Part shown: positions 8,061 to 26,684 of the stretch, in pieces
Layout: every line of letters begins with the position of its first letter
Numbering within the stretch: the first letter of the stretch is position 1
From: Actinomycetes bacterium
GTDB lineage: Bacteria > Actinomycetota > Acidimicrobiia > Acidimicrobiales > Ilumatobacteraceae
DNA: 64,000 nt
NCBI GenBank assembly: GCA_025359865.1
Contig: JANYDH010000014.1
Coordinates: forward strand, 1 to 64,000
Direction: 5' to 3'
Notes under the pieces: model-generated
The model's database searches: none
What the model saw: the letters and a program-made list of their open reading frames with translations, nothing else
Told to the model about the DNA's origin: nothing
Program-made: the position numbers and the translations under genes

Positions 8061-8876
8061 TCAATCGAGATAGCCCCACTCGCGTAGCGAGCGGAGTATC
8101 CGTTCGGCTGCTTCGCCCGGCTCGAGTGCCACGGTTTCGCCCCGCGTTGACGAGCCGGTGGCGTCGGTGAGCGCTCGCAGCCGCGCCAGCGGATCGGGGT
8201 CGCCGGGTGACATCATTGTGCGGGCGCGCGGCCGATACGGCGTGACCACAGCCGTTGCCGCGTGTGCGGCCATCGGCGCGGACGGGCGAACGTCGATGTT
8301 GGTAGTTCTGGCTGCCAGAGCGTCGCGCAGTCCGGCGCGACGTAGCCGCGCCACCGAACCCTCGACGGACAGCACGCATGGCAACGGCACGGTGAGAAGT
8401 TCGCGACGGCCGCCGTCGAGTCGCCGCACGACATGCAGCATGCGGTCCACAACACCGGTGTGGTCGACGCTCACCAGCCCCAATGCCTGAGCGCATCGCA
8501 GCCGGTGGGCCAAGAAGGCAGGCACTGAACCACTACCCCGGTCGAGCGAATAGTCACCACAGACGACAATGGCAGCATCACCGACCACTCCCTCCAGTTG
8601 GCGGGCCACCTCGGCAGAGTCGAGCGCTGATGGTGCGTCGAGACGAACGGCGCGGTGCGCACCACAGGCCAGTGCCTCACGCAACGCCAGTTCGGCGGCC
8701 ACCGGCCCGACCGCCGCGGCAGTGACCGAGCCACGGGAATGCTCTGCGAGGACGAGTGCCGTTTCGAGCGCTGCCTGGTCTGCCGGGCTGACCCCGGCGA
8801 ACCGCTCATCGGCATCGGCCACGCCCGGCCGTGCGGTCAACTTGAGGCAGACCACGATGTCGATCGGCGAGTTCAT
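8061..8876 (-). CDS. fixA: Electron transfer flavoprotein beta subunit, FixA type
   Basis: Protein of 271 aa, the beta (AMP/FAD-binding) partner of the FixB protein. It begins PIDIVVCLKLTARPG, the usual EtfB opening, and carries LEGVVGDAAIVVCGDYSLDRGSGSVPAFLAHRL around residues 90-130. The segment around residue 165 (VVRRLDGGRRELLTVPLPCVLSVE) is the family's C-terminal signature region. The start is the ATG at 8876 inside an ATGA overlap with fixX. Operon position and the FixC/FixX partners support a Fix-type complex rather than a plain ETF for acyl-CoA oxidation. Confidence 0.88.
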   Translation of the reverse strand: MNSPIDIVVCLKLTARPGVADADERFAGVSPADQAALETALVLAEHSRGSVTAAAVGPVAAELALREALACGAHRAVRLDAPSALDSAEVARQLEGVVGDAAIVVCGDYSLDRGSGSVPAFLAHRLRCAQALGLVSVDHTGVVDRMLHVVRRLDGGRRELLTVPLPCVLSVEGSVARLRRAGLRDALAARTTNIDVRPSAPMAAHAATAVVTPYRPRARTMMSPGDPDPLARLRALTDATGSSTRGETVALEPGEAAERILRSLREWGYLD

Positions 8877-9181
8877 GTGCGTCGAAACACGATGCCGTGG
8901 CCGCCCTCGGGGTACGACCAACTGATCGCTCCCTCCTGATTGCAGACCAGGTAGCAGGTGCCGCACTCGAAGCACTGTTCGTAGTTGAAAACGACACCAC
9001 CGTCGCTGGTGGGCACGAACAGGTTTGCGGGGCAGGCGACGACACACTCGCGTGATGTGCAGTCTGCGCACACGGCACTGTTCACAACGATGTGCGCGTG
9101 TGGGTGGACGTCGAAATGGGCCGTGGCCATCCGCTCTTCGAACGAGACCTCGGGCCACTGGGAATCGCTGCTGTGCATCAT
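8873..9181 (-). CDS. fixX: FixX-like ferredoxin
   Basis: A 102-aa ferredoxin that would receive or pass electrons at the FixC flavoprotein. Cysteines lie in CADCTSRECVVACP near residue 38 and CFECGTCYLVC near residue 70, consistent with the FixX/ETF-QO ferredoxin domain. The start is the ATG at 9181, forming an ATGA overlap with the fixC stop; an ATG one codon later is also possible. The next gene, fixA, also overlaps by four bases, so all three are translated together. Confidence 0.9.
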   Translation of the reverse strand: MMHSSDSQWPEVSFEERMATAHFDVHPHAHIVVNSAVCADCTSRECVVACPANLFVPTSDGGVVFNYEQCFECGTCYLVCNQEGAISWSYPEGGHGIVFRRT

Positions 9182-10512
9182 CCGAATGTCCTGAGGCCGG
9201 CCCAGCCGTCGCGGGCAAGATCGCGGCGGCGCACCCCGGCGCGCTTGCGTTCCTGGGCGAGGATTCGCCGGAGTCCGGGCTTCGGGTCGGGGTTGTCTAC
9301 ACGGAACATCCGCTCGACGACCGCCGCAACCATCTGCGGGTACCGGTGTTGCACCCGGTCGCTGAGCACGAGTGCGGGCGCCCGCCGAAGCTTTCGGTGA
9401 TCACGCAGCACGAACGTCTCGGTGAGTCGCCGTTCGTACCCGGCGAGTCCCTGTTCGCTGGTGTCACCGCGACGCAACGCTTCGGCGGCCGCTTGGCCGG
9501 CGTACATTCCGCTGGCCATCGCGAAGTTGACGCCCTCGAGCCAGATACCGGCAGCGAGGCACAGCGCGGCTGCATCGCCGGCGACGAGCAGTCCCGCCGT
9601 AGCCAGTTTCGGCATCATCGACAACCCTGCCTCTGGGATGAGATGCGCCGAGTACTCCTTCAATTCGCCGCCTTCGACCAGGGGTGCAATTGCCGAGTGA
9701 GTCTTCATCTTGGCAATGATCTGCTCGGGGCGCAGTTGCTGGGCAGCCAGTGCTGGCAGCTTCAACACCACGCCCACGGCAACCGTGTCGAGGTTGGTGT
9801 ACACGAAGCCGCCGCCGTTGACGCCGCTCGTGCAGCCGATGATCTCGATATCGACGCCTTCGCGCCCGCGCACACCGAACCGCTCGTCGATCACTTCCTT
9901 CGGTAAGCCGATGGTTTCTTTCACTCCGAGGGTGTAGTGCTTCGCGGCAACCTCGCGATACAGGCCAGCATCTTTCGCGAGGAAGCTGTTGACACCATCG
10001 CACGCGATCACCAACCGCGCGGTGAGGTCACCGTCAGGTCGGTCGGTGGTCACACCGGTCACCGCGCCAGATCGGTCGCGGAGCAGACCCGTGGCCGTGG
10101 TGCTGCACAGCAACTGTGCTCCAGCGGATTCAGCGTGGCCAGCGAGCCAGTGGTCGAAGTCGGGCCGATACGCGGTGGCGCCGTTGTAGGGCGGCGCGGC
10201 CCACGCGTCGTTACGGAAGTCGATCGACATCGCCTGCGTATCAGTCATCACCATCGTCGACCGTCGGGTGATCCACCGTTGGACCGGCGCCTCATCGTAC
10301 CAGCGGGGGATCAGCTCGTCGAGGATGCGGGGGTAGACGACGCCGCCGTACATGTTCTTGCTGCCGGGGAACGGCCCGCGTTCCAACAGCACAACGCTGA
10401 AGCCGGCGCGTGCCAGCGCGATGGCAGCGCAGGAACCAGCGGGTCCGGCACCGACCACGATGACGTCGACGTCGACGTCCGGGTTGGCAGCGTGCTGCGT
10501 GCGATCACTCAC
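9178..10512 (-). CDS. fixC: FixC-type flavoprotein, ETF:quinone oxidoreductase family
   Basis: FAD protein of about 444 aa in the GG-reductase/ETF-QO superfamily. It has the dinucleotide motif VVGAGPAGSCAA near residue 18 and the GDAAALCLAAGIWLEGVNFAM segment that binds FAD near residue 330. In Fix complexes this subunit hands electrons to quinone. I chose the GTG at 10512, preceded by GGCCGGAG; it overlaps the fixB stop by eight bases. An ATG at 10578 would add a Ser-Thr-His repeat tail read from the tandem repeat and is less likely. Confidence 0.88.
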   Translation of the reverse strand: MSDRTQHAANPDVDVDVIVVGAGPAGSCAAIALARAGFSVVLLERGPFPGSKNMYGGVVYPRILDELIPRWYDEAPVQRWITRRSTMVMTDTQAMSIDFRNDAWAAPPYNGATAYRPDFDHWLAGHAESAGAQLLCSTTATGLLRDRSGAVTGVTTDRPDGDLTARLVIACDGVNSFLAKDAGLYREVAAKHYTLGVKETIGLPKEVIDERFGVRGREGVDIEIIGCTSGVNGGGFVYTNLDTVAVGVVLKLPALAAQQLRPEQIIAKMKTHSAIAPLVEGGELKEYSAHLIPEAGLSMMPKLATAGLLVAGDAAALCLAAGIWLEGVNFAMASGMYAGQAAAEALRRGDTSEQGLAGYERRLTETFVLRDHRKLRRAPALVLSDRVQHRYPQMVAAVVERMFRVDNPDPKPGLRRILAQERKRAGVRRRDLARDGWAGLRTFG

Positions 10513-11464
10513 GACTGGCTCCGGCCCTGTCGAGTGGGTCGAGTGGGTCGAGTGGGTCGAGTGGTCGGAGCCGAACAAGTAGTTCGTGCACCACCGCGTT
10601 GGCGTCGGCCACCACGGCGAGATCGGCGAGTTGCATCATCGGGCAGAACGGGTCGACGTTGATGCTGATGATGTGGTGCGGATGGCCGAGTCCGCTGGTG
10701 TGCTGTACCGCTCCGCTCACACCGAACGCGATGTACAGATCGGGATGGACCACCACGCCGGTGGTGCCGATCTGGCGCTCATGGCCGATCCAGCCCCGAT
10801 CGGTCACCACACGAGTGGCCCCGACGCTGGCTTGCAGTGCCACGCCGATCTCGGCCAATTCGCTGAACTGCTGTGGGCTCCCCAAGCCGGCGCCTCCTCC
10901 AAGAATGCGGTGTGCCTCGGCAAGGTCGATGGTGGCGGCATCGGGCTGCAGCACGCCATCGACGGTGGCATCGTGGTGCAACCCGAAGGCGAGTTCGATC
11001 TCGGCGATTTCCGGTGCAGCGGTGATGTTGTCGGTGCCGCGCACACCGGGTTGCAGCGTGGCCACGAACGCAGCCGGCGGAACATGCGTGTGCATCCGCA
11101 GGCCGCCATCGCGGGCCAGGACCACCGATGATGCCGACACCGAAATCGCTCCGGCGAACAGTGGCCAGCCGAGAGCCGCAGCAATCCGGGGTGCCAGGTC
11201 GCGCCCATCTGGTGAAGCAGGGAGTACCACTATTTTCGGAAGCCCGAGCATGCCGGTCGGGTCGATGACAGCGGCCGCGATTGCGTTGGCCCACGCGCCC
11301 GGTTGGAACGGGCCGACCTCGGCAAGGCACACCCGACCGGAAAGGTCGCCAGCGGCCGTCCTGGTCGCTGCTCCGATCAGGAGCGTTCGGTTGTGGCACT
11401 CGGCTGCGACTTCGCCACCACCGAGCGGCAGCACACCATCGCGAACGGGGATCACGGCCAGCAC
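10505..11464 (-). CDS. fixB: Electron transfer flavoprotein alpha subunit, FixB type
   Basis: Protein of 319 aa, the FAD-holding alpha subunit. The C-terminal domain shows the family FAD motifs: ATRVVTDRGWIGHERQIG near residue 222, then GVSGAVQHTSGL and ISINVDPFCPMMQLADLAVV. It ends in a Leu-Asp-Pro repeat encoded by four 9-base units at 10529-10564. The start is the GTG at 11464. It is the first gene of the operon, in the order fixB-fixC-fixX-fixA, and the spacing supports one transcript. Confidence 0.9.
   Translation of the reverse strand: MLAVIPVRDGVLPLGGGEVAAECHNRTLLIGAATRTAAGDLSGRVCLAEVGPFQPGAWANAIAAAVIDPTGMLGLPKIVVLPASPDGRDLAPRIAAALGWPLFAGAISVSASSVVLARDGGLRMHTHVPPAAFVATLQPGVRGTDNITAAPEIAEIELAFGLHHDATVDGVLQPDAATIDLAEAHRILGGGAGLGSPQQFSELAEIGVALQASVGATRVVTDRGWIGHERQIGTTGVVVHPDLYIAFGVSGAVQHTSGLGHPHHIISINVDPFCPMMQLADLAVVADANAVVHELLVRLRPLDPLDPLDPLDRAGASRE
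10529..10564. repeat. 9-bp tandem repeat (GTCGAGTGG) x4
   Basis: Four exact units of GTCGAGTGG at the fixB/fixC junction. They encode the Leu-Asp-Pro repeat at the end of FixB. Unit gain or loss would keep the frame, so it would change tail length rather than switch the gene off. Confidence 0.9.
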
Positions 11465-11540
11465 AGGTTCAGGCTAACGAACCACCCGCTCGACAACGCC
11501 TTCGGCAGTTCGGGGATCGATTGGCTCAAAATCTCCTGAC

Positions 11541-11582
11541 GTTTGGCGTTCGGCTGTCACTGACAACAACCCAACGCCAAAG
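11541..11582. repeat. 42-bp dispersed palindromic repeat, full copy B
   Basis: The outer arms are GTTTGGCGTT (11541-11550) and AACGCCAAA (11573-11581), around an inner TGTCA-C-TGACA (11555-11565). The total length is again 42 and the copy is followed by GGTC. It lies between divergent genes (fixB and the MFS exporter), so it cannot be only a terminator. Confidence 0.9.
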
Positions 11583-11676
11583 GTCAGCCCTGAAGCACGG
11601 GCTCCGGGCACCGTAGCAACCAACCGAACTTCGATACGCTGACGCCTCGAACGTCGGCCGACAGGAACAGGATCAC

Positions 11677-13254
11677 ATGGCGAGTAGGCACAGCGCGCCC
11701 ATCTCCGACGGAACGGTCGGCGCGGATCTCGGCGGCATCGACCCGCACGACTACCAACGTCGCCATGCCATCCAAGCCACCATGTGCCTCAGCCTCGTGC
11801 TGATCGTGGCGACGGTCAGTTCTGTCAACGTAGCCATCCCCAGCCTCGCCAAGTCGTCGCTGAACCCGACTGATACGCAGATCTTGTGGATCGTCGATGC
11901 ATACGCACTCGTGTTCGCTGCGTTGCTGCTGCCTGCGGGCGCGCTCGGCGACCGGTTCGGTCGCAAGGGCGCGTTGCTGGTGGGGCTCGTCATCTTTGCC
12001 GCCGCCTCGGCGCTCTCGTCGGTGATGGATACGCCCGAGGCACTCATCGCCACCCGCGCGATCATGGGCATCGGGGCCGCACTGATCATGCCCTCCACGC
12101 TCAGTCTGTTGCAGTCCGTTTTCCCACCCGAGGAACGCGCCAAGGCAATCGCGGTGTGGTCGGGGTTCGCCGGTGCCGGAGGCGCGATCGGCCCGCTGAT
12201 CGGCGGACTCCTCCTTCAACATTTCTGGTACGGCTCGGTGTTCTTCGTGGCTGTGCCGATCGCGGCGCTTGCGTTCGTGGCGACCGCCGTACTCGCGCCA
12301 AAGTCGAAAGAAAGCAATCCCAGCCCTCTCGACCCAGTCGGCGCGGTGCTGTCGGTTGTCGGGTTCGTCGGGTTGTTGTTCGCGATCATCGAGGGACCGG
12401 ATCGTGGGTGGGGCGACTCGCTCGTGCTCGCTGGTTTCGCTGTGGCGGTGTTTGGCCTCGCGGGATTCATCGTGTGGGAGCGCCAAGCGGCGGACCCCAT
12501 GCTCGATATGCAATTCTTTCGCATTCCGCGTTTCGCGATGGGCAGCTTGGGCATCACGTTCACGTTCCTCGCGATGTTCTCGACGTTCTTCCTACTCACC
12601 CAGTACCTGCAGTACGTCAAGGGGTACTCGCCACTCGAGGCGGGCGTGCGCGGCTTGCCGTTCGCCGCAACGATGCTCATCGTTTCGCCGAGATCAGCCG
12701 ATCTGGCGGCCAAGATCGGGGTGCGCCGGGTCGTCGGCGGGGGGATGGGGTTGCTGACCGTTGGGCTGATCATGTTGTCGTTCTTCGGTCTCAACACCCC
12801 GTACTGGTACGTGGCCACCTGTCTGGTGATCATGGCGACCGGCGTCGCAGGGGCGATGTCGTCGCTGAGTGCCGGCATCGTGCAGTCGGTACCGATGAAC
12901 AAGTCGGGCGTCGGTTCCGCCGTCAACGATTCCAGCCGCGAGGTCGGAGGGGCCATTGGTATCGCCGTAGTCGGCAGCATCGTGACCGGCATCTACCGCG
13001 ATCACTTGTCGCCGTCGCTCAGCGCGCTCCCGGCAGACGTTGCCAACCTGGCCCGCGACAACGTAGCCAAGGCGCTCGGCGTTGCCGACCGTGCGGTCGA
13101 CATTGTCGGCCCCGAGGTGGCCGACCAGCTGCGTGACGCAGTGCGCCAGGCCTTCGTCGATGGAGCGCACGTCGGTCTGCGGGTGTCCGCCGGCTTGGTG
13201 GCCGCAGCAGCGGTGGTGGTCTGGGTACGCCTGAACGAGCATCACCTCACCTAG
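11677..13254 (+). CDS. MFS drug efflux transporter, DHA2 (EmrB/QacA) type
   Basis: Membrane exporter of 525 aa with the 14-helix layout expected for DHA2 proteins. Helix 1 contains SVNVAIPSL, the conserved family motif. Loop 2-3 reads GDRFGRKGALL, the MFS motif A, and motif C is GAGGAIGPLIGGLL near residue 168. It probably exports toxic compounds with proton antiport; the substrate is unknown. The start is the ATG at 11677 after a weak AGGA. No regulator gene of TetR or MarR type lies beside it. Confidence 0.88.
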   Translation: MASRHSAPISDGTVGADLGGIDPHDYQRRHAIQATMCLSLVLIVATVSSVNVAIPSLAKSSLNPTDTQILWIVDAYALVFAALLLPAGALGDRFGRKGALLVGLVIFAAASALSSVMDTPEALIATRAIMGIGAALIMPSTLSLLQSVFPPEERAKAIAVWSGFAGAGGAIGPLIGGLLLQHFWYGSVFFVAVPIAALAFVATAVLAPKSKESNPSPLDPVGAVLSVVGFVGLLFAIIEGPDRGWGDSLVLAGFAVAVFGLAGFIVWERQAADPMLDMQFFRIPRFAMGSLGITFTFLAMFSTFFLLTQYLQYVKGYSPLEAGVRGLPFAATMLIVSPRSADLAAKIGVRRVVGGGMGLLTVGLIMLSFFGLNTPYWYVATCLVIMATGVAGAMSSLSAGIVQSVPMNKSGVGSAVNDSSREVGGAIGIAVVGSIVTGIYRDHLSPSLSALPADVANLARDNVAKALGVADRAVDIVGPEVADQLRDAVRQAFVDGAHVGLRVSAGLVAAAAVVVWVRLNEHHLT

Positions 13255-17648: not shown

Positions 17649-19067
17649 ATGACAGCAACCACCAGAGGCACGTCGACATCGAACTTCGGTGTGTCCAAAC
17701 GTGAGAGCCATGACGCATCGGGGTTCTATGCGCGCTTTTCGCCACCGATCATCGATGACGCCGATGATCTAGGGACCACCGAGCACGTCGACCGGATCGT
17801 GGTCGGCGACGCGAGGCAGATGACCGAGGTCGCCGACAACTCTGTCGCACTCGTAGTCACGTCGCCGCCGTACTTTGCCGGCAAGGCCTACGAAGAGGCG
17901 CTCGGCGAGGACGGCATCCCGGCCACATACATCGAGTACCTCGGCATGCTCCGCGACGTGTTCGCCGAGTGCCTGCGTGTGCTCGAACCGGGCGGCCGGA
18001 TGGCGATCAACGTCGCCAACCTCGGTCGCCGTCCGTATCGGTCGCTGGCCGCCGACGTCACTGCGATCTTGCAGGATGACCTGCGGATGCTGCTGCGCGG
18101 CGAGGTGATTTGGATGAAGCAACGTGGTGCCTCAGGCTCGTGCGCGTGGGGGTCGTTCCAGCGCCCGGGCAACCCTGTCTTGCGTGACCTGACCGAGCGG
18201 GTGGTCATCGCCAGCAAGGGTCGCTTCGACCGGGCGGTCGACGCCAAGCACCGTGCCAAACGCGGGCTTCCCTCGGTGAGCACGCTCACCCGCGACGAGT
18301 TTATGGAGGCCACCCTCGACGTGTGGGAGATCCCGGCCGAGAGCGCGTCGCGGGTCGGTCATCCGGCACCGTTCCCGGTCGCGTTGCCCGAACGGTTGAT
18401 CAACCTGCATACCTACCTCGGAGATCTCGTCCTCGATCCGTTCATGGGCTCGGGCTCCACCGCCGCCGCGGCCGTACGCACCGGCAGGCACTTCATCGGC
18501 TACGACACCGATCCGGAATACGCCGCCTTGGCCGATCGGCGGATAGCGAGCGAACGCGAGAGTGCTCCAAGCGTTTCACCGGTTCAGATTCATCCCGGCG
18601 ACGGTCAGAAGGGCGATCCGTTTCGCAGCGGATGGTCATCGAAAGAGCTCGCCCGGTGGTCGCTCGCCGAAGCGGGCTTCACCGCGATCGACGATTCTGC
18701 CAAGGTCGCGCCTGGTGTACAACCAACGCTCCGAGCGCTCGACCGTGCCGGCCGGGTGTGGTGGTTCGAGGTTGCAGGTGGCCGCACCGGCAGCCGCCCC
18801 GGGGCACAGCGGATCGATGTGTTGTGGCGGGCCATCGCCAAGGGTGCAGTGATCGCTGCCGCCGATCCCGCCCACCGGTATGGGGTCGTGGCGTGCGGAC
18901 TGCCATCGGCGGCCGCAGGGGGCAAGGCGCTCGCCATGGTCTCCGGCGACACCAAACTGGTGCAGGTCGTGGTCGATCTACTGGCCCCCGATGCCATCGC
19001 CCTACTCGCCTGGCACGCGTCCTCCGCCTCCCCTACGGCGTCCCCGGAGGTTCGAGCCGGCGCTTGA
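17649..19067 (+). CDS. Beta-class DNA methyltransferase (N4-cytosine type) with unknown C-terminal domain
   Basis: Site-specific DNA methyltransferase of 472 aa. Motif IV TSPPY is at residues 71-75 and the SAM motif DPFMGSGST at 263-271; this IV-before-I order defines the beta class. Ser-Pro-Pro-Tyr, rather than Asp-Pro-Pro-Tyr, points to N4-methylcytosine. Residues 301-472 do not belong to the methylase core. Their predicted helix-strand-strand order, with VWWFEVAGG in the middle, recalls nuclease-like folds, but I find no D/E-x-K pair. No restriction gene is adjacent, so it looks like an orphan methylase. It starts with ATG 16 bases after the previous gene. Confidence 0.87.
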   Translation: MTATTRGTSTSNFGVSKRESHDASGFYARFSPPIIDDADDLGTTEHVDRIVVGDARQMTEVADNSVALVVTSPPYFAGKAYEEALGEDGIPATYIEYLGMLRDVFAECLRVLEPGGRMAINVANLGRRPYRSLAADVTAILQDDLRMLLRGEVIWMKQRGASGSCAWGSFQRPGNPVLRDLTERVVIASKGRFDRAVDAKHRAKRGLPSVSTLTRDEFMEATLDVWEIPAESASRVGHPAPFPVALPERLINLHTYLGDLVLDPFMGSGSTAAAAVRTGRHFIGYDTDPEYAALADRRIASERESAPSVSPVQIHPGDGQKGDPFRSGWSSKELARWSLAEAGFTAIDDSAKVAPGVQPTLRALDRAGRVWWFEVAGGRTGSRPGAQRIDVLWRAIAKGAVIAAADPAHRYGVVACGLPSAAAGGKALAMVSGDTKLVQVVVDLLAPDAIALLAWHASSASPTASPEVRAGA

Positions 19068-19205: not shown

Positions 19206-19649
19206 TCAATGATCGAGCACAACGGGGACGAGTCGGAAGCCTTCGATGAGCGCTGCTTGCCGCAATGCGCGGTCGAACACGACGAACGCATCGACCGCTC
19301 CGACGACGTCTCGCGCCACCTATGCCGTCGCGAGTTGCACTGCGTCGTAGGCGCGCAATGCATGGCGGGAAACGGATTCAACCGCTCGTCGCACGATGAG
19401 CGGTCCAAGTCCGATGACAGCGAAGCGCCCGGAGGTGTCATCGAGATCAGCTTCGAATGCGACCGACAACGTTGCTGCATCGCTGGCGTCGATCTCGCCC
19501 ATGCGGTGTTTGCGCCAGAAAGCGGAAGCCACTTCCACCCTCGTGACCGCGGCCACGATGATCGGGCCAGCCAGGTCGCGCACCGCTGCGTGTTGACGCT
19601 CTGGGACATACAGCTTCGCGATTGCCGAACTGTCGAAGAACAGCGTCAC
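19206..19649 (-). pseudogene. vapC: VapC-type PIN toxin broken by an in-frame amber codon
   Basis: The first 109 codons encode a PIN-domain ribonuclease: FFDSSAIAKLY with the first acidic residue, TRVEVASAF, and the third-acid segment LRAYDAVQLATA. A TAG at 19322-19320 stops it. In the same frame the next 37 codons read as a normal PIN ending (VVFDRALRQAA, then GFRLVPV) and end at TGA 19206. Full length would be 147 codons, normal for VapC. The start is GTG at 19649, in a GTGA overlap with the antitoxin. It is either inactive, read through, or a sequencing error. Confidence 0.85.
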
Positions 19650-19942
19650 CGACCGGTGCTGACCAGTTCGTCGAGCGGAGTTCCACCGGCCGCGCGGCGG
19701 CCCGCCGCGACCACCGTTTGACTTGACCGCGGTGCTGCATGCCGAAACATCGGAGCGTCGATCAGACCAGCCAGTGCTAGTCGCTCTCGGATCACCGCCG
19801 CCTCACTTCCTGCGGTGGACGGGTCGGTGGCAGCGGCGAGGATCACGGTGATGAACTCGTTGAGCGATCGGTCGGATCGTCGCGCAGCCAGCCGGACGCG
19901 GTCAACGAGTGTGTCATCGGCGCGCCAACTCACCTGGGCCAT
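19646..19942 (-). CDS. vapB: VapB-like antitoxin (ribbon-helix-helix)
   Basis: Protein of 98 aa that starts AQVSWRADDTLVDRVRLAARRSDRSLNEF, a ribbon-helix-helix DNA-binding motif typical of antitoxins. The acidic/Ala-rich C-terminal half would wrap the toxin. The ATG is at 19942, and its stop overlaps the start of the PIN toxin by four bases. Type II antitoxins of this kind repress their own promoter; the region upstream (19943-20153) also serves the divergent MazEF-like pair. Confidence 0.82.
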   Translation of the reverse strand: MAQVSWRADDTLVDRVRLAARRSDRSLNEFITVILAAATDPSTAGSEAAVIRERLALAGLIDAPMFRHAAPRSSQTVVAAGRRAAGGTPLDELVSTGR

Positions 19943-20153: not shown

Positions 20154-20387
20154 GTGGCAACAACAACGATCCGCGTCGACGCGGCGACCCACGCGCAACT
20201 GCTGGAGTTGAGCAAGGCGACGGGGTCATCGCTGATCGACACGGTGCGCGAGGCCGCCGAAGCGCTGCGGCGGCAGAGATTCGCACATCGAGTCGCCGAC
20301 GAGTTGGCGGAGTTACGCAACGACTCCGACTCATGGGACCGGTACGTGGCCCAAGCCGACGACTCGGTGGGCGATGGCCTCGGTTGA
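20154..20387 (+). CDS. MazE-like antitoxin
   Basis: Protein of 77 aa starting with GTG. The N-terminal half (TTTIRVDAATHAQLLELSKATGSSLIDTVREAAEAL) looks like a ribbon-helix-helix DNA-binding domain. The C-terminal half is acidic and likely wraps the toxin. It overlaps the toxin gene by 14 bases. The upstream repeats at 20119-20146 suggest self-repression. Confidence 0.8.
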   Translation: MATTTIRVDAATHAQLLELSKATGSSLIDTVREAAEALRRQRFAHRVADELAELRNDSDSWDRYVAQADDSVGDGLG

Positions 20388-20712
20388 CGAACTCTGGCTC
20401 GTCGACTTCGGCACGCCATATCCGGGTGAGCCCGCCTCGTTCCGGCCAGCGCTGGTTATCGGGCCGCCTGACAGTTTTGGACCGACCTTCCCGTTCGTGA
20501 TCGTGGCGCCGCTGACGACAACTCGACGTGGGTTGTCGCTGCACGTGGAGGTCGACCAGTCGCCGAGCAACGGACTCGACGAGACGAGCTACGTGCAGTG
20601 CGAGCTGATCCGTTCCATCAACCGCAAGCGTCTCGTGCATCGCCTGGGAGCCGCAGCCCCAGCCGACACACAACGTGTTGCGAACATCATCAAGACGTTG
20701 CTCAACTACTGA
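20374..20712 (+). CDS. MazF/PemK-family mRNA interferase
   Basis: Toxin of 112 aa, normal MazF length. Family features are LWLVDFGTPYPGEPASFRPALVI at the start, then FVIVAPLTTTRR, then YVQCELIRSINRKRLVHRLG near residue 75; the RPALVI and CELIRSI parts line the RNA site. It would cut mRNA at a short sequence and stop growth when the antitoxin is lost. The frame is intact, unlike the neighbouring VapC. Confidence 0.88.
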   Translation: MASVDELWLVDFGTPYPGEPASFRPALVIGPPDSFGPTFPFVIVAPLTTTRRGLSLHVEVDQSPSNGLDETSYVQCELIRSINRKRLVHRLGAAAPADTQRVANIIKTLLNY

Positions 20713-21511: not shown

Positions 21512-21991
21512 TCAGCCCTTGGCTTTGGCCCCCGTTCGCCAGTCGGGCACGCTCGGCGCGTTCGGTTCCAGGCTGCGAAGGTAGGTCACCAGTTCGCGGA
21601 TCTGTTCGGCGGTCAATGAGCCGCCATAGTCCTGGGCCCAGGCGGTCATCGAACTTCCCGAGACGCCACCGGTGATGAGCAGTTCGATCTGGTTGTCACT
21701 GGTGGTGCTGAGAAACTGTTTCGAGTTCAGCGTCGGCGCGGTGCCACCCGTGCCGCTCGGACCGTGGCATGTCGAGCAGTTCTTCGCAAACAGATCTGCG
21801 CCGCTCTTCATGTAGGCGGCGTCTTGCTCGGTCTTTGCATCAGCGCGAAGCGTGGGCTCACGGAGCCAGTAGATGGGGAAGGCAACGATGAGTACCGCCA
21901 TGAAGACGAGGCCCCAGGCGAGATAGCGGTCGAGGCTGCGCTGTAGCCATTCGGGCTCGAACTCGCGGGGACCGGTGGGGGTGGCAGCCAT
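21512..21991 (-). CDS. Membrane-anchored class I cytochrome c
   Basis: Protein of 159 aa. One membrane span lies at about residues 24-43, then an outer monohaem domain. The haem motif is CSTCH (Cys72, Cys75, His76), and Met115 in SGSSMTAWAQ is the likely sixth ligand. The C-terminal helix LTAEQIRELVTYLRSL is typical. It is the last gene of the six-gene respiratory operon, three bases after the Rieske gene, and would take electrons from the Rieske centre toward an oxidase not present in the window. Confidence 0.92.
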   Translation of the reverse strand: MAATPTGPREFEPEWLQRSLDRYLAWGLVFMAVLIVAFPIYWLREPTLRADAKTEQDAAYMKSGADLFAKNCSTCHGPSGTGGTAPTLNSKQFLSTTSDNQIELLITGGVSGSSMTAWAQDYGGSLTAEQIRELVTYLRSLEPNAPSVPDWRTGAKAKG

Positions 21992-21994
21992 CGC

Positions 21995-22489
21995 TCATCC
22001 CTTCCCGGAGCAAGACGGACCTGTGGCAGGTGTCAAGAACACCGCTGCACCTGGATCAGGGCCGTTGATTCGTTGGCTCGTGTCGACCACCAGGATGTCG
22101 CCCTCGATGCTCAACGGGTGCTGGTCCATGCCTCGAGGCGACGGTCCGGAGATCCATTCGCCGCCGATGTCGAACACCGAGCCGTGGCACGGGCACTCGA
22201 ACCTGCCGGAGCTCTCGCAGAATGGAATGCGGCAACCGAGGTGCGGGCACTTCTGCGAGAGCGCGAACAGATGCCCGTCAGCATTGGCGACCCACAGTCG
22301 AGCGGCGTTGACGTACGTCGCGGTACCCGGGGCATAGCTGCTGGCACTCCCGAGTTTGATCTTGCCGGAGGCGCCGCCGGCCTTCAGCGGGCGGAGCAGT
22401 TCCCACGAGGTCCATCCGGCGATGAGCGCAAGAAAGCCTCCTCCGAGTTTCCAGCCTGATTCGAGCAGGCTTCGACGGGTGAGTTTCAT
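21995..22489 (-). CDS. Rieske iron-sulfur protein of a bc-type complex
   Basis: Protein of 164 aa with a twin-arginine start (LTRRSLLESG) followed by a hydrophobic anchor. Cluster ligands are in CPHLGC (81-86) and CPCHGS (99-104): Cys81, His83, Cys99 and His102, with Cys86-Cys101 as the disulfide. The ATG at 22489 was chosen because the Tat motif begins there. It lies between the cytochrome b and cytochrome c genes with gaps of 10 and 3 bases. Confidence 0.93.
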   Translation of the reverse strand: MKLTRRSLLESGWKLGGGFLALIAGWTSWELLRPLKAGGASGKIKLGSASSYAPGTATYVNAARLWVANADGHLFALSQKCPHLGCRIPFCESSGRFECPCHGSVFDIGGEWISGPSPRGMDQHPLSIEGDILVVDTSQRINGPDPGAAVFLTPATGPSCSGKG

Positions 22490-22499
22490 GTCGGCTGCC

Positions 22500-23858
22500 T
22501 CACAGTTCCAAGTACGAATGTTGCCATGGGGCGATGAACTCCCAGCCCGGGCCACGGAACAGCGCTCCGAGCACGGTGAGTACCAGTGCGACGAGCAGCA
22601 CGATGCTGAAGATCGTGATCGCCACCTTGCGGTATCGCGACTCGGTTGCCGGATTGCGGTCGATGTAGGGCAGCGCGATCAGCGTAATCAGGGCACCGGC
22701 CGGGACGAAGATGCCTGCGACTAGAGGGTCGAAGTGCGACAGCAGTTCTTGGAGCCCGACGAAGTACCACGGCGCCTTGGCCGGCTCCGGTGTCTCGTTG
22801 GGGTTGGCCAGCCCACGCAGCGGGGCAGCGAAGAGCACGCCGAGGGTGAGCACGACGGCCACCGTGCCCAGACCGACAACCACGTGGCGCACGAGCATGT
22901 GTGGCCACGTGAACACGGTGTCGTCGGTCAGACGCTCCTCGGCCGTGACCGACTCGCGATCGACCACGCCGAGCAGGCGGACCCGCCGCCCGTCGGCGGC
23001 GACGTTGGTGACCGCGGTGACGCTAGCGATAGGGGTGACGTCGGTCGACTCCTCGGCAAAAGCACCCACGCCGCCACGCTTCACGGCGAAGCCATCCTTG
23101 CGCACCCTCCAGATGTGGATCATCAGCACAAGCGCCAGCGAAACGGGCAGTACGGCCACATGGAGTGCGTAGAAGCGCAGCAGCGTTGCTTGGCCGATCT
23201 GTTCGCCGCCGATCAGCAGATCGCGCAGGGTGTCGCCGAGGACCGGGATGTAATTGACGAGGTTGGTACCGACAGTGACCGCCCAGTAGCTGAGTTGGTC
23301 CCACGGCAACAGATAGCCGGTGAACGAGAACCCGAGCGTGATTGCGAGCAGCACGATGCCGAGCACCCAGTTGAACTGCCGTGGCCGTTTGTACGCGCCA
23401 GCGAAGAACACCCGCACGAGGTGCAGTATCACGACCAGCACCATCAGGTGGGCGGACCAGCGATGTACATTGCGAATCAATTGGCCGAAGCCGACGCCGG
23501 TACGCAACTGCTGCATGTCGCCGTAGGCCGAGGTGACCGACGGTGTGTAGAAGAACATCAGGTAGACCCCGGTAGCGAGCAGCACGCCGAACAGCACGCT
23601 CGCGATGTAGCCGAGTCGCCAGGAGTAGCGCACCTTCAGGACGCGAGCGGGCACCTTCACGGGGTAGACGTGCAGGAACACGTTCGAGAACGACTGCAAC
23701 GCTCGCCCGCGAGGGGTGTCGAGATGAGGGTGGCGGAACATTGAGCGCCACGCTTCGCCGTGGCGGACCCGATCGAACCAGCCTTCGGGCACGGGCCGAT
23801 CTTGCGGCTCTAACACGTCGTTGCGAACGTCGACGACCGTGTCGGATGCTTCGGTCAC
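22500..23858 (-). CDS. Cytochrome b of a bc/b6f-like complex
   Basis: Protein of 452 aa with both the b6-like and subunit-IV-like parts in one chain. Four haem His are seen: HRWSAH, VILHL, YALHV and LMIHIW, with spacing like cytochrome b6. SFTGYLLPWDQLSYWAV is the conserved quinol-site loop, and KAPWYFVGLQE stands for the PEWY region of the second part. The start is GTG at 23858, with a very strong AGGAGGTG before it, in a GTGA overlap with the flavoprotein stop. That coupling ties it to the flavoprotein. Confidence 0.93.
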   Translation of the reverse strand: MTEASDTVVDVRNDVLEPQDRPVPEGWFDRVRHGEAWRSMFRHPHLDTPRGRALQSFSNVFLHVYPVKVPARVLKVRYSWRLGYIASVLFGVLLATGVYLMFFYTPSVTSAYGDMQQLRTGVGFGQLIRNVHRWSAHLMVLVVILHLVRVFFAGAYKRPRQFNWVLGIVLLAITLGFSFTGYLLPWDQLSYWAVTVGTNLVNYIPVLGDTLRDLLIGGEQIGQATLLRFYALHVAVLPVSLALVLMIHIWRVRKDGFAVKRGGVGAFAEESTDVTPIASVTAVTNVAADGRRVRLLGVVDRESVTAEERLTDDTVFTWPHMLVRHVVVGLGTVAVVLTLGVLFAAPLRGLANPNETPEPAKAPWYFVGLQELLSHFDPLVAGIFVPAGALITLIALPYIDRNPATESRYRKVAITIFSIVLLVALVLTVLGALFRGPGWEFIAPWQHSYLEL

Positions 23859-25663
23859 GTGGACACCTCCTGGGCATGGACCATCACGAGTGCGGTCGGT
23901 GGACAACGGTTGATGCACAGGCCGCACCTGATGCACAGTGTCTCGTCGATCACGAGCGCGGACTGCAGGCTGGTGCCCGCGCCGATGTTGTCGGCGCGCA
24001 CGATCGAGATACAGTCGAACGGGCACACGTCGACGCACAGCCCGCACAGAATGCACAATTCTGGGCGCAGCATGATGTTGTCGAAGCAGCGCAGGCAGCG
24101 CTGACCTTCCAACACCGCGTGGCCTTCGTCGTATCCGGTTTCCACCTCGGCGAACCCGATCCGTCGATCTTGTGGCATGTTCGGAACAGGGATGCGGGCA
24201 ACTGCGTCGTAGTCGGTTGCTAGCCGCCGAAATCCGGGTTTGGCGGTCAGTTCGACCCGGACACCGGTAGCTGGAACCGGCTTGTTTCCGAGTAGCGCGG
24301 TGTGGATCGATGCCGCGGCCCGACGACCATCCGCGATGGCATCGATCAGGTTGCGTGGGCCGAATGCCACGTCGCCGCCGGCCCACACCCGAGGATCGCT
24401 CGATCTCAGATCGGCATCGACGGCGATGCCGCCGAACCGGGTGCGGTCGAGTTCGCTCTCGCCGAGGAACGTCACGTCGGGTGCCTGTCCCACAGCCAGG
24501 ATCACGGTGTCGGCGGGGATCACCTCCTGGGTCCCCTCGGCGAAGACCGGCGAGAACCGACCTGAGCTGTCGAATACGGAAACGACATCGACGGTTTCGA
24601 GACCAGTCACCCGTGTATCGCCGACGACGCGATGTGGCCCATGCCGGTAGAGGATTCGGATTCCTTCCCTCTCGGCCTCCTCGACCTCTTCGAACGCGGC
24701 TGGCATCTCTTCGAACGATTCGAGCGCGATGACCGTGACTTCCTTGACGCCGGCACGTAGCGCAGCGCGCGCCGCATCGAGCGTGGTGGTCAGACCGCGA
24801 CGTGCAACGTCGGCGGTGTTGGAAGCGAGCATCGTCGGCGTCGGAGCGGCCTCGTCGTACGCGGCAGCGCGCAGGGCGGTGCGCGCCGCGTCGAACGCGA
24901 CGTTGCCACCACCGACGACGACCACCCGCTCGCCGAGGTCGACCCGGTACCCGCGGTTGATGTTGAGGAGGAACTCGACGGCCGTGAACACACCATCCAG
25001 ATCGTGGCCGGGAATATCGAGATCACGCCCGCGGGCTGTGCCAACGCAGACGAACACGGCTGCGTGCTGTTCGAGCAATTCGGCGAAGGTGACGTCGATA
25101 CCGATCCGGCAGTTGACGTGGGCCTCGATGCCCAGTTCGAGGATCGCTTCGATTTCTCTCTCGATGAGCGGGCGCGGCAGGCGGTATTCGGGAATCCCGA
25201 GCACCATCATCCCACCGAGTCGGGCCTCGGCTTCGTAGACCGTGACGCGATGGCCAGCGAGGCGCAGATCGTGCGCAGCAGCGAGGCCGCCCGGCCCGCC
25301 GCCGATGATGCCGACCGATGGTCCGGTCGCGGCGGGTACTGGGCCGTGGCCCTCGTGCCATGCCTCGGCGCCGGCGAAGCTCTCGACACCGAACCGCTCG
25401 GTGACGAACCGCTTCAGCGCCCGGATCGATACCGGCGCATCGATGCAGCCGCGCCGACATGCGGTCTCGCACGGGGCCGCACAAATGCGGCCACATACCG
25501 ATGGGAATGGATTTGGTCCACGGGCCAGCACATAGGCATCACGAAAGCGACCTTCGGCGATGGCGGTGACGTAGCCGCCGGCGTCGGTGTGTACGGGACA
25601 CGCCGCCCTACACGGCTCGTTGTCCCACAGCCATTGGGCGTCGGGAACTACGGGATGGTTCAC
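23855..25663 (-). CDS. GltD-like FAD/NAD(P) oxidoreductase with N- and C-terminal FeS domains
   Basis: Protein of about 602 aa. The N-terminal cysteine-rich domain (CRAACPV, then CGRICAAPCETACRRG) matches the GltD-type 4Fe-4S domain. Two nucleotide motifs follow: GIIGGGPGGLAAA for FAD and VVVVGGGNVAFDAA for NAD(P)H. The C-terminus adds CLRC, CILCGLCVDVCPFDC and CIRCGLCINRCPP, a two-cluster ferredoxin. It is in a coupled operon with cytochrome b, so it may feed electrons from NAD(P)H or ferredoxin to the quinone pool. The start is GTG at 25663; an ATG at 25744 would overlap the upstream gene by 71 bases. Confidence 0.85.
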   Translation of the reverse strand: MNHPVVPDAQWLWDNEPCRAACPVHTDAGGYVTAIAEGRFRDAYVLARGPNPFPSVCGRICAAPCETACRRGCIDAPVSIRALKRFVTERFGVESFAGAEAWHEGHGPVPAATGPSVGIIGGGPGGLAAAHDLRLAGHRVTVYEAEARLGGMMVLGIPEYRLPRPLIEREIEAILELGIEAHVNCRIGIDVTFAELLEQHAAVFVCVGTARGRDLDIPGHDLDGVFTAVEFLLNINRGYRVDLGERVVVVGGGNVAFDAARTALRAAAYDEAAPTPTMLASNTADVARRGLTTTLDAARAALRAGVKEVTVIALESFEEMPAAFEEVEEAEREGIRILYRHGPHRVVGDTRVTGLETVDVVSVFDSSGRFSPVFAEGTQEVIPADTVILAVGQAPDVTFLGESELDRTRFGGIAVDADLRSSDPRVWAGGDVAFGPRNLIDAIADGRRAAASIHTALLGNKPVPATGVRVELTAKPGFRRLATDYDAVARIPVPNMPQDRRIGFAEVETGYDEGHAVLEGQRCLRCFDNIMLRPELCILCGLCVDVCPFDCISIVRADNIGAGTSLQSALVIDETLCIRCGLCINRCPPTALVMVHAQEVST

Positions 25664-25673
25664 GTGGGAGCGC

Positions 25674-25877
25674 TCACAGTACGTGTCTGGCTTGGAGGCG
25701 ACGCAGCCCCCACAGCAGCGCCGTGAGGGCCACACCGAACTCAACCGTTGCGAACAACACCCGTCGACTGCGATCGATGCCCGACAGTTGCAGCAGTTGG
25801 TCGGGCACGATCACCAACAACACGAACGCGGCGATCACCACGAGCACGCCCGTAATGATCGCCCGAGGTGTTTTCAC
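25674..25877 (-). CDS. Small membrane protein in the respiratory operon
   Basis: A 67-aa protein with two likely membrane segments (AIITGVLVVIAAFVLLVIV and LFATVEFGVALTALLWGL). I recognise no family. The start is GTG at 25877, in a GTGA overlap with the cupredoxin stop, and it ends 10 bases before the flavoprotein start. Placement suggests a small subunit or assembly factor of the bc-type complex, but that is inference. Confidence 0.65.
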   Translation of the reverse strand: MKTPRAIITGVLVVIAAFVLLVIVPDQLLQLSGIDRSRRVLFATVEFGVALTALLWGLRRLQARHVL

Positions 25878-26365
25878 GGTGTGACCGTGAATGCAACTCG
25901 CATTCCCTGTCCGTAGTGCTTTTCGATGTTGCACACCAGCACGTAGTTACCGGCAGCAAGATCGAACGTCTTGACCACGGTCTTGCCTGCATCAGTCTCG
26001 GCGATCTCGCCGACGCTCGAGTCTTCGCTGACCTTGTTGGTCGCAGCGTCGATCTCGAGCTTGTCGAATGGCGTATCGGTCTTCAGTACGATCATCTCGT
26101 GCTGGCGGTTGCCCGTGTTCTGGAAGGTGAACGTCACTTGCCCTGCCTTCACCGAGGCTGGCGCCAAGGTGAAGAACTGTTCCGTCGCGGACTTGTCGCC
26201 TGCGGTCAACGACACCGGTACGCCCGTGGCAGCGGGAACCGTGATGCCACCACCACCACCACCACCTGCCGTAGTGGTGGTGGATGTCTTGGCATCGGAT
26301 GAGCACCCCACCAGTGCCGTGATGCCCAGCATCACCGCGATGGTCGCAATCATTGGTCTACGCAT
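25874..26365 (-). CDS. Blue copper (cupredoxin) lipoprotein
   Basis: Protein of 163 aa. A lipoprotein signal ends in lipobox LVGC (Cys21), then a Thr/Gly-rich linker leads to a cupredoxin domain. The type 1 copper ligands are visible: His89 in NRQHEM, Cys145 in VLVCN, His150 and Met155 in KHYGQGM. The C-x4-H-x4-M spacing is classic. It is the first gene of the operon with the flavoprotein and bc genes, so it probably carries electrons outside the membrane. It may be related to sulfocyanin-like proteins; the exact family is uncertain. Confidence 0.85.
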   Translation of the reverse strand: MRRPMIATIAVMLGITALVGCSSDAKTSTTTTAGGGGGGGITVPAATGVPVSLTAGDKSATEQFFTLAPASVKAGQVTFTFQNTGNRQHEMIVLKTDTPFDKLEIDAATNKVSEDSSVGEIAETDAGKTVVKTFDLAAGNYVLVCNIEKHYGQGMRVAFTVTP

Positions 26366-26486: not shown

Positions 26487-26684
26487 ATGCGCGTTCAGAT
26501 CGACAGCGAGAAATGCCAGGGCCACAACCGGTGCTATGCCCTCGCCCCCGAGTTGTTCGACGTGGATGACTACGGTTCGGCACTCGTGGTCGGCGATGGT
26601 GTCGTGCCGGTGGAGATGCACGCCAAGGCCCGCCTTGCCGTGGCCAACTGTCCTGAGTTCGCCATCACGATCGTCGACGACTGA
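26487..26684 (+). CDS. Small ferredoxin with a CX2HX2C motif
   Basis: A 65-aa actinobacterial ferredoxin of the type that serves cytochromes P450. The N-terminal cluster motif reads CQGHNRC, with His where 4Fe-4S ferredoxins have Cys, and the last Cys is in NCPE. This points to a 3Fe-4S cluster or to one with a His ligand. No P450 gene is in the window. It starts with ATG and is divergent from the respiratory operon, whose first gene starts 120 bases away. Confidence 0.88.
   Translation: MRVQIDSEKCQGHNRCYALAPELFDVDDYGSALVVGDGVVPVEMHAKARLAVANCPEFAITIVDD

What the first reader, a model, noticed from the sequence alone, without database searches (positions are those of the whole stretch)
21512..26365. 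Six-gene operon linking cupredoxin, FeS flavoprotein and cytochrome bc complex
The junctions are GTGA overlaps or short gaps of 3-10 bases, so all six proteins are probably made in step. A GltD-like flavoprotein with extra ferredoxin domains directly coupled to cytochrome b is unusual, as is a blue copper protein in place of, or beside, a soluble cytochrome c. It may be an NAD(P)H- or ferredoxin-linked quinone reductase joined to a bc complex with a copper exit path. This is the best candidate in the window for an undescribed system.
Basis: partly seen in the sequence, partly recalled or inferred. Interest (0 to 1): 0.75.

Follow-up and report, generated by a model that had tools for sequence, protein, structure and literature searches.

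The report
NADH-linked Rieske/cytochrome b operon with copper protein
This six-gene operon very probably encodes a membrane respiratory complex that connects NAD(H) in the cell to quinone and, outside, to a blue copper protein, making it an uncharacterised actinobacterial cousin of complexes discussed for anammox bacteria.

Summary
In detail: six genes on the minus strand, 26365 to 21512, with overlaps of 4 or gaps of 3-10 bases: cupredoxin lipoprotein, two-helix membrane protein, GltD-like flavoprotein with ferredoxin domains, fused cytochrome b/subunit IV, Rieske protein, membrane-anchored monohaem cytochrome c. Among the 80 nearest relatives of the flavoprotein, cytochrome b follows in the 77 whose contig allows a test; the genome has a separate GltB-GltD pair, so this is not glutamate synthase.

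It is a new variant of a known kind: Rieske/cytochrome b complexes with an NAD(P) oxidoreductase, known from anammox Kustd1480-85 and Kuste4569-74. The Rieske protein's best two PDB hits are those two proteins. Differences: no haem cN cysteine, an NAD(H)-type residue pattern, a monohaem cytochrome, a conserved two-helix subunit and a cupredoxin. The cupredoxin sits where 30 of 56 sister-clade loci have a cytochrome c. Some relatives lie beside a haem-copper oxidase, nitrate reductase or N2O reductase.

Coupling of NAD(H) to the b haems is well supported by inference; direction is not. I slightly favour quinol bifurcation that reduces NAD+ while electrons leave through Rieske, cytochrome c and copper; NADH oxidation is nearly as likely. 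My ten literature searches found no biochemistry for this branch.

The parts
25874..26365 (-). Cupredoxin lipoprotein (type 1 copper, ligands H89, C145, H150, M155, loop C-x4-H-x4-M); lipoprotein reading is by eye from the signal sequence
   Evidence: Pfam SoxE 26.5 bits and Copper-bind 25.7 bits, both over cut-off; ligand residues invariant in the window and 11 of 17 clade-1 loci aligned; model core pLDDT 93-97, best folds auracyanin and rusticyanin
25674..25877 (-). Two-helix membrane protein, a conserved subunit of the family
   Evidence: No Pfam or NCBIfam match at E 0.001; two hydrophobic segments; homologous domain directly upstream of the flavoprotein in 77 of 80 relatives after an iterated HMM restricted to that position, 43 before iteration
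23855..25663 (-). GltD/Nfn-like FAD- and NAD(H)-binding flavoprotein with N-terminal Fe-S domain and C-terminal ferredoxin domain; 16 conserved Cys, enough for four [4Fe-4S] clusters
   Evidence: Pfam Fer4_20, Pyr_redox_2, Fer4; NCBIfam PRK12771 449 bits, cut-off 516; PDB profile hits; residues in 80 relatives
22500..23858 (-). Cytochrome b with fused subunit IV part; four haem-b His, no haem cN Cys
   Evidence: Pfam Cytochrome_B 175 bits, Cytochrom_B_C 45 bits; alignments to b6 of PDB 6rqf and to 75 relatives
21995..22489 (-). Rieske [2Fe-2S] protein (CPHLGC / CPCHGS)
   Evidence: Pfam Rieske 43.6 bits; best PDB hits 9rk3 and 9rk4, the two anammox Rieske proteins
21512..21991 (-). Monohaem cytochrome c with one N-terminal membrane helix (CSTCH)
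   Evidence: Pfam Cytochrome_CBB3 41.2 bits; helix 20-38

Best explanation
The operon encodes one membrane complex of the NAD(P)-oxidoreductase-bearing Rieske/cytochrome b kind. On the cytoplasmic side the flavoprotein binds FAD and NAD(H) and is wired by about four [4Fe-4S] clusters to the cytochrome b haems. On the outer side the Rieske protein passes electrons to the anchored cytochrome c and from there to the cupredoxin. Likely direction (inferred): menaquinol is oxidised at the outer site; one electron goes downhill through Rieske, cytochrome c and copper to a terminal reductase, and this drives the other uphill through the b haems and Fe-S clusters to NAD+. Shown here: gene content, order, conservation, cofactor ligand residues, the NAD-type residue. 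Inferred: assembly into one complex, cluster number, electron path, quinone type, direction.
For: Flavoprotein followed by cytochrome b in 77 of 80 relatives, the other 3 at contig ends (in L093 the Rieske gene lies between). 16 Cys present in 79-80 of 80; the anammox model has four clusters between b part and FAD (PMC12954380). E315 stands in 80 of 80 where the three best PDB relatives have the second Arg of YRR: NAD rather than NADP. Rieske hits Kustd1480 (9rk3, 70.5 bits) and Kuste4569 (9rk4, 57.1 bits) first among 79 PDB sequences, next 55.1, while the Rieske of the genome's other complex shows no such preference (9rk4 56.1, PetC 55.3 and 55.2, 9rk3 53.6). It keeps the Ser/Phe pair of Kustd1480, measured at +335 mV. 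PF00346, the complex I 49-kDa family, is in 197 of 197 genomes sampled, so NADH oxidation probably has another route. A locus labelled Ignavibacteriales bridges the two: small two-helix protein, flavoprotein, Rieske, cytochrome b, subunit IV, multihaem c (L093). High-potential partners lie beside some relatives: oxidase, NarG, NosZ.
Against: Direction is not shown. No link with carbon fixation: strong RuBisCO hits in 11 of 197 genomes, only 1 of them among the 37 with the flavoprotein, and no hit in the window's own genome. Linkage to terminal reductases fits NADH oxidation equally well. Haem cN, present in the anammox models, is absent (0 Cys of 75), and so is a multihaem c subunit. The conserved N-terminal His (H63) lies 190 residues before the Arg-Lys pair, against 204 between His62 and Arg266 in Kustd1481, so its equivalence to the proposed interface-haem ligand is open; the genome's other cytochrome b, without a flavoprotein, has this His too. 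No anammox flavoprotein or cytochrome b sequence was available to compare.
Confidence: 0.45

Rival explanations
1. Same complex, forward direction: NADH is oxidised by the flavoprotein, electrons enter the b haems and reduce menaquinone at the inner site; the quinol is then oxidised at the outer site through Rieske, cytochrome c and copper to a terminal reductase. It is a non-pumping NADH dehydrogenase built into a bc complex.
For: Relatives lie beside terminal reductases: COX1 and COX2 in the same 18 of 56 clade-2 loci and NarG in 8 of 56, with no overlap, and NosZ-like genes beside three copies from L093's phylum. Most hosts lack RuBisCO, which leaves them less need to make NADH from quinol. 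Haem ligands and Rieske are intact, so a Q-cycle remains possible.
Against: PF00346 is in 197 of 197 sampled genomes, so energy would be wasted; the authors of the anammox work call this direction unlikely on the like ground. The high potential measured in the related Rieske proteins is not needed for it.
Confidence: 0.4
2. The flavoprotein uses ferredoxin rather than NAD(H), its ferredoxin domain being the docking and exchange site.
For: It has a two-[4Fe-4S] ferredoxin domain, and the genome's other complex (L020) carries a free ferredoxin-like protein of 137 aa with no flavoprotein beside it, next to nuo-like genes.
Against: The Pyr_redox_2 domain is complete (112 bits) and the NAD-site residues are conserved in 80 of 80, which a pure ferredoxin enzyme would not need.
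Confidence: 0.1
3. The flavoprotein is a glutamate synthase small subunit or a separate soluble enzyme that only shares a transcript with an ordinary bc complex.
For: It is homologous to GltD and Nfn.
Against: The genome has its own GltB-GltD pair. Linkage to cytochrome b is 77 of 77 testable loci, and cytochrome b or subunit IV genes are close in the four loci fetched from L093's phylum.
Confidence: 0.05

Closest known systems
Anammox Rieske/cytochrome b complexes Kustd1480-1485 and Kuste4569-4574 (Kuenenia stuttgartiensis; PMC12954380)
   Same: Rieske protein, b-type cytochrome with subunit-IV part and an NAD(P) oxidoreductase with about four Fe-S clusters from one gene cluster; their Rieske proteins are the window Rieske's two best PDB hits; same Ser/Phe pair near the cluster as Kustd1480.
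   Different: Monohaem instead of hexa- or octahaem cytochrome c; no haem cN Cys; subunit IV fused to cytochrome b; cupredoxin and 2-TM protein in the operon; no HAO-like subunit; Actinomycetota hosts. Whether Kuenenia has the 2-TM protein or the NAD-type Glu was not tested.
Cytochrome b6f
   Same: Cytochrome b is closest to b6 among solved structures (5.9e-52); copper protein as electron carrier (plastocyanin, recalled).
   Different: No haem cN Cys (Arg81 at that place), no cytochrome f found, b6 and subunit IV fused, flavoprotein added.
Nfn-type flavoproteins and GltD
   Same: Fer4_20 plus pyridine-nucleotide oxidoreductase fold; PDB profile hits include NfnA 9n5u, 5jca and glutamate synthase small chains.
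   Different: YRR replaced by mostly [AS]LE; N-terminal Cys set differs from that of the genome's own GltD (by eye); linked to cytochrome b.
Auracyanin / rusticyanin / sulfocyanin
   Same: Cupredoxin fold (Foldseek best hits auracyanin 6kol and rusticyanin 1rcy), Pfam SoxE match, C-x4-H-x4-M copper loop.
   Different: 20-25% identity; TM-scores about 0.5 by query length; EfeO is also among the top hits; here in an NADH-linked bc operon.

Membership tests
NAD(P)-oxidoreductase-bearing Rieske/cytochrome b complexes (anammox kind) | Rieske, b-type cytochrome and NAD(P) oxidoreductase encoded together | tested here: met
   flavoprotein and cytochrome b together in 77 of 77 testable loci
NAD(P)-oxidoreductase-bearing Rieske/cytochrome b complexes (anammox kind) | Fe-S cysteines for a path of about four clusters in the oxidoreductase | tested here: met
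   16 Cys in 79-80 of 80; their grouping into four clusters is inferred
NAD(P)-oxidoreductase-bearing Rieske/cytochrome b complexes (anammox kind) | Rieske closest to Kustd1480/Kuste4569 among solved structures | tested here: met
   (control: the genome's other Rieske)
NAD(P)-oxidoreductase-bearing Rieske/cytochrome b complexes (anammox kind) | N-terminal His of cytochrome b as ligand of the proposed interface haem b | tested here: inconclusive
   H63 in 75 of 75, but spacing to Arg-Lys is 190 against 204, and the paralogous L020 also has it
NAD(P)-oxidoreductase-bearing Rieske/cytochrome b complexes (anammox kind) | Multihaem c subunit | tested here: not met
   One CXXCH in the window's cytochrome c; multihaem c is present in L093 and in L118-L120. 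I treat it as a variable exit part, so the claim is 'variant', not plain member
NAD(P)-oxidoreductase-bearing Rieske/cytochrome b complexes (anammox kind) | Haem cN | tested here: not met
   Cys in 0 of 75 at the b6 Cys position
NAD(P)-oxidoreductase-bearing Rieske/cytochrome b complexes (anammox kind) | Electron bifurcation from quinol to NAD(P)+ | not testable with these tools
   Only proposed in the anammox case as well (PMC12954380)
Glutamate synthase small subunit | Partner GltB beside it | tested here: not met
   GltB-GltD lies on another contig
Cytochrome b6f | Haem cN Cys and cytochrome f | tested here: not met
   the c-type subunit matches Cytochrome_CBB3
NADP(H)-binding Nfn/GltD group | YRR motif at the NADP site | tested here: not met
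   E315 in 80 of 80 against YRR in 9n5u, 9bov, 8oh5; that YRR marks NADP(H) is recalled
Type 1 blue copper proteins | His, Cys, His, Met ligands on a cupredoxin fold | tested here: met
   copper binding itself not tested

The most novel reading that the evidence does not exclude
A general, modular machine: one core (NAD(H) flavoprotein, cytochrome b, Rieske, two-helix subunit) is fitted with exchangeable high-potential exits (cupredoxin, cytochrome c, multihaem c) and thereby with O2, nitrate or N2O, and uses respiration of these to push quinol electrons up to NAD+ in ordinary non-anammox bacteria.
Probability: 0.3. Interest if true: 0.85.

Novelty: new variant of a known kind. Interest (0 to 1): 0.6.

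Why it matters
The anammox NAD(P)-linked Rieske/cytochrome b complexes look like an oddity of one lifestyle. Here the same core occurs in 37 of 197 sampled genomes of the window's class (the window's own genome included) and in 4 of 198 of a sample of L093's phylum (L093's own genome included), with the electron exit swapped. If it runs as proposed, it is a second way, besides reverse complex I, to make NADH from quinol; if it runs forward, it is an NADH dehydrogenase built into complex III. Either would add a branch to respiratory chains, testable in bacteria easier to handle than anammox organisms.

Tried and rejected
Glutamate synthase subunit: rejected. Replacement for complex I: rejected, PF00346 in 197 of 197 (the Pfam family also covers hydrogenase subunits, recalled). 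Link with Calvin-cycle autotrophy: none (24 of 197 hits at 1e-10, 11 of them with E under 1e-60; 5 of the 37 flavoprotein-bearing genomes have any hit, 1 a strong one). AlphaFold model of the flavoprotein (A1, 8 rows): mean pLDDT 46, not used. NCBIfam PRK12771 over its cut-off: no, neither in the own genome nor in the 14 controls. Conserved neighbours of clade 1 that would name a substrate: beyond the operon's own genes and their antisense ORFs, no group listed holds more than 5 of the 18 clade-1 loci, and that one looks like an ABC-transporter ATPase. A 41-locus ORF group that I first took for one upstream cytochrome c family turned out mixed, with members elsewhere and on the other strand, so I dropped that count. 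A 196-aa ORF at the head of L093 that I took by eye for a cupredoxin matches no cupredoxin family. Literature: ten text searches were answered; their listings showed no actinobacterial flavoprotein-Rieske-cytochrome b-cupredoxin complex. I saw passages of PMC3578206 and PMC13053071, which do not describe one either, and only listings of the rest. The library lacks most subscription journals; Kartal et al. 2013 is known to me only as cited in PMC12954380, and ten Brink et al. 2013 is recalled; neither was read.
Full report
WHAT IS THERE. Pfam supports a cupredoxin, a GltD-like flavoprotein with ferredoxin domains, a cytochrome b with C-terminal part, a Rieske protein and a cytochrome c; the second gene, 67 aa with two hydrophobic segments, matches no family. 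The window lies in a 4.99-Mb draft genome of 219 contigs. Most named relatives are Actinomycetota by title, many of them labelled Acidimicrobiia; one is labelled Ignavibacteriales (L093), one Acidobacteria (L075), and a few only 'bacterium'.

NOT A GLUTAMATE SYNTHASE. The same genome has a GltB (1566 aa) and GltD (483 aa) pair on another contig. The window flavoprotein matches NCBIfam PRK12771 best (449 bits, under the cut-off of 516) and, as a profile, PDB entries of Nfn-like proteins.

CONSERVATION OF ORDER. Among 41 genomes (own and 40 relatives), 7 carry 8 copies at E 1e-60; none of the 4 other genomes of the same genus does, so the operon is patchy. A scan of GTDB genomes with the profile of 8 flavoproteins found 496 stretches that encode a relative and kept the best 80, L021-L100. 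Cytochrome b follows the flavoprotein on the same strand in 77; the other 3 (L055, L064, L098) end within 102 bases of it. In L093 the Rieske gene lies between. These 80 are the nearest of 496, so more distant relatives could differ. In a sample of 198 genomes of L093's phylum, 4 carry 5 copies, L093's own among them; in the four loci fetched from the other three genomes (L118-L121), cytochrome b or subunit IV genes are close by.

CLADES AND SWAPPED EXITS. A tree of the 80 flavoproteins and the window (quick method, SH-aLRT only, midpoint root) gives clade 1 (window and L021-L037, support 100), clade 2 (56 loci, support 100) and a small group of 7. A cupredoxin lies upstream in 16 of 17 clade-1 loci and the last, L037, has no upstream sequence. 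In clade 2, 0 of 56 have a cupredoxin there, while 30 of 56 have a CXXCH within 1.6 kb upstream; in 25 of these it is in one ORF with the two-helix domain. The other 26 clade-2 loci show neither there. One clade-1 locus, L024, also shows a CXXCH, just before the flavoprotein and in its frame, which I take for chance. In the small group a cupredoxin lies downstream in 3 of 7 (L067, L068, L081); L074 and L092 end too early to tell. So the copper protein stands where about half of the sister clade has a cytochrome c.

THE TWO-HELIX SUBUNIT. An HMM begun from clade 1 and iterated on hits directly upstream of the flavoprotein ends with 77 of 80 loci; missing are L037 (no sequence), L093 and L097. 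The first round, before iteration, had 43. The position filter helps this number; at the same threshold 12 hits lie elsewhere, of which the ten printed are short and partial. L093 has its own small protein with two hydrophobic segments at that place, which the HMM does not reach.

PARTNER ENZYMES. ORF groups made by single-linkage BLAST put COX1 and COX2 into the same 18 of 56 clade-2 loci and NarG into 8 of 56, with no overlap; one COX1, one COX2 and one NarG were checked by HMM. Many flanks are cut, so these are lower bounds. In the window's own genome two COX1 matches lie on another contig, C83, with a NirK-like protein nearby (157.7 bits, under the cut-off of 296.3).

COFACTOR RESIDUES. 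Flavoprotein: 16 Cys present in 79 or 80 of 80, the exceptions being gaps; E315 in 80 of 80. In the three best PDB matches this place is the second Arg of YRR. I read this as NAD(H) specificity; that YRR binds the NADP phosphate is recalled knowledge. Sixteen Cys suit four [4Fe-4S] clusters; the assignment is inferred. Cytochrome b (75 relatives): haem ligands H132 75, H146 74, H233 73, H248 73, the rest gaps or X; H63 75; R253 and K254 72, the rest gaps or X; the place of the b6 haem-cN Cys is Tyr 29, Arg 23, Phe 22, Gly 1 and never Cys. The genome's other complex (L020, beside nuo-like genes) does have that Cys (YTLCLGG) and also the His. The PEWY motif of the quinol site (recalled) reads APWY in the 24 of 24 rows that reach it and in L020 and L093. 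Rieske (72 relatives): cluster ligands in 70 or 71, the rest gaps; S104 is Ser in 65 and Thr in 5; F106 is Phe in 60 and Tyr in 10. Cupredoxin: ligands invariant in the 12 sequences aligned, the window and 11 of 17 clade-1 loci; fold closest to auracyanin and rusticyanin.

COMPARISON WITH THE KNOWN. PMC12954380 (abstract, introduction, modelling section, first of two parts of the discussion, and passages) describes two anammox complexes with NAD(P) oxidoreductases, Rieske potentials of +303 and +335 mV, and a proposal that quinol bifurcation reduces NAD(P)+. Their Rieske structures, 9rk3 (Kustd1480) and 9rk4 (Kuste4569), are the first two of 79 PDB matches of the window's Rieske (70.5 and 57.1 bits, next 55.1). 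The Rieske of L020 does not separate them from b6f. L093 links the two sets: small two-helix protein, flavoprotein, Rieske, cytochrome b, separate subunit IV and a cytochrome with at least five CXXCH, cut by the contig end. I therefore file the operon as a variant of that kind, with two of its features not met (multihaem c, haem cN) and one inconclusive (interface-haem His).

DIRECTION. For quinol bifurcation to NAD+: the anammox proposal and potentials, the mostly conserved Ser, the presence of PF00346 in 197 of 197 genomes and strong oxidants beside some relatives. For NADH oxidation: linkage to terminal reductases, lack of any link with RuBisCO and a simpler energy balance against a proton-motive force (own reasoning). 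I put 0.45 against 0.40; the assembly into one NAD(H)-linked complex I hold at about 0.85.

Noticed in passing
L020 (own genome, C37:3000-22000), 8684-12672: The genome's other Rieske/cytochrome b complex: free 2x[4Fe-4S] ferredoxin-like protein (137 aa), cytochrome b6 with the haem cN Cys, separate subunit IV, Rieske and dihaem cytochrome c, followed by ORFs that look by eye like nuoA, nuoB, nuoC. A ferredoxin-like subunit beside a b6f-like complex and complex I genes is itself unusual.
   Followed up: partly
   Followed up: partly
L054 4205-6400; by eye similar in L045 and L070: Divergent operon beside clade-2 copies with a fused protein: b-type cytochrome, two Fer4 motifs and more, next to COX1/COX2 and a Sco-like gene. 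The L054 protein passes no cut-off among the best 25 of 42 NCBIfam matches shown.
   Followed up: partly
26487-26684 +: Small ferredoxin-like ORF, divergent from the operon; no match beside any of 80 relatives in the flanks held. Named by eye.
   Followed up: yes
19320-19942 - and 20154-20712 +: Two likely toxin-antitoxin pairs (PIN-domain-like and MazF-like), named by eye from the translation.
   Followed up: no
17649-19067 +: ORF that looks like a DNA methyltransferase (TSPPYF motif), named by eye.
   Followed up: no
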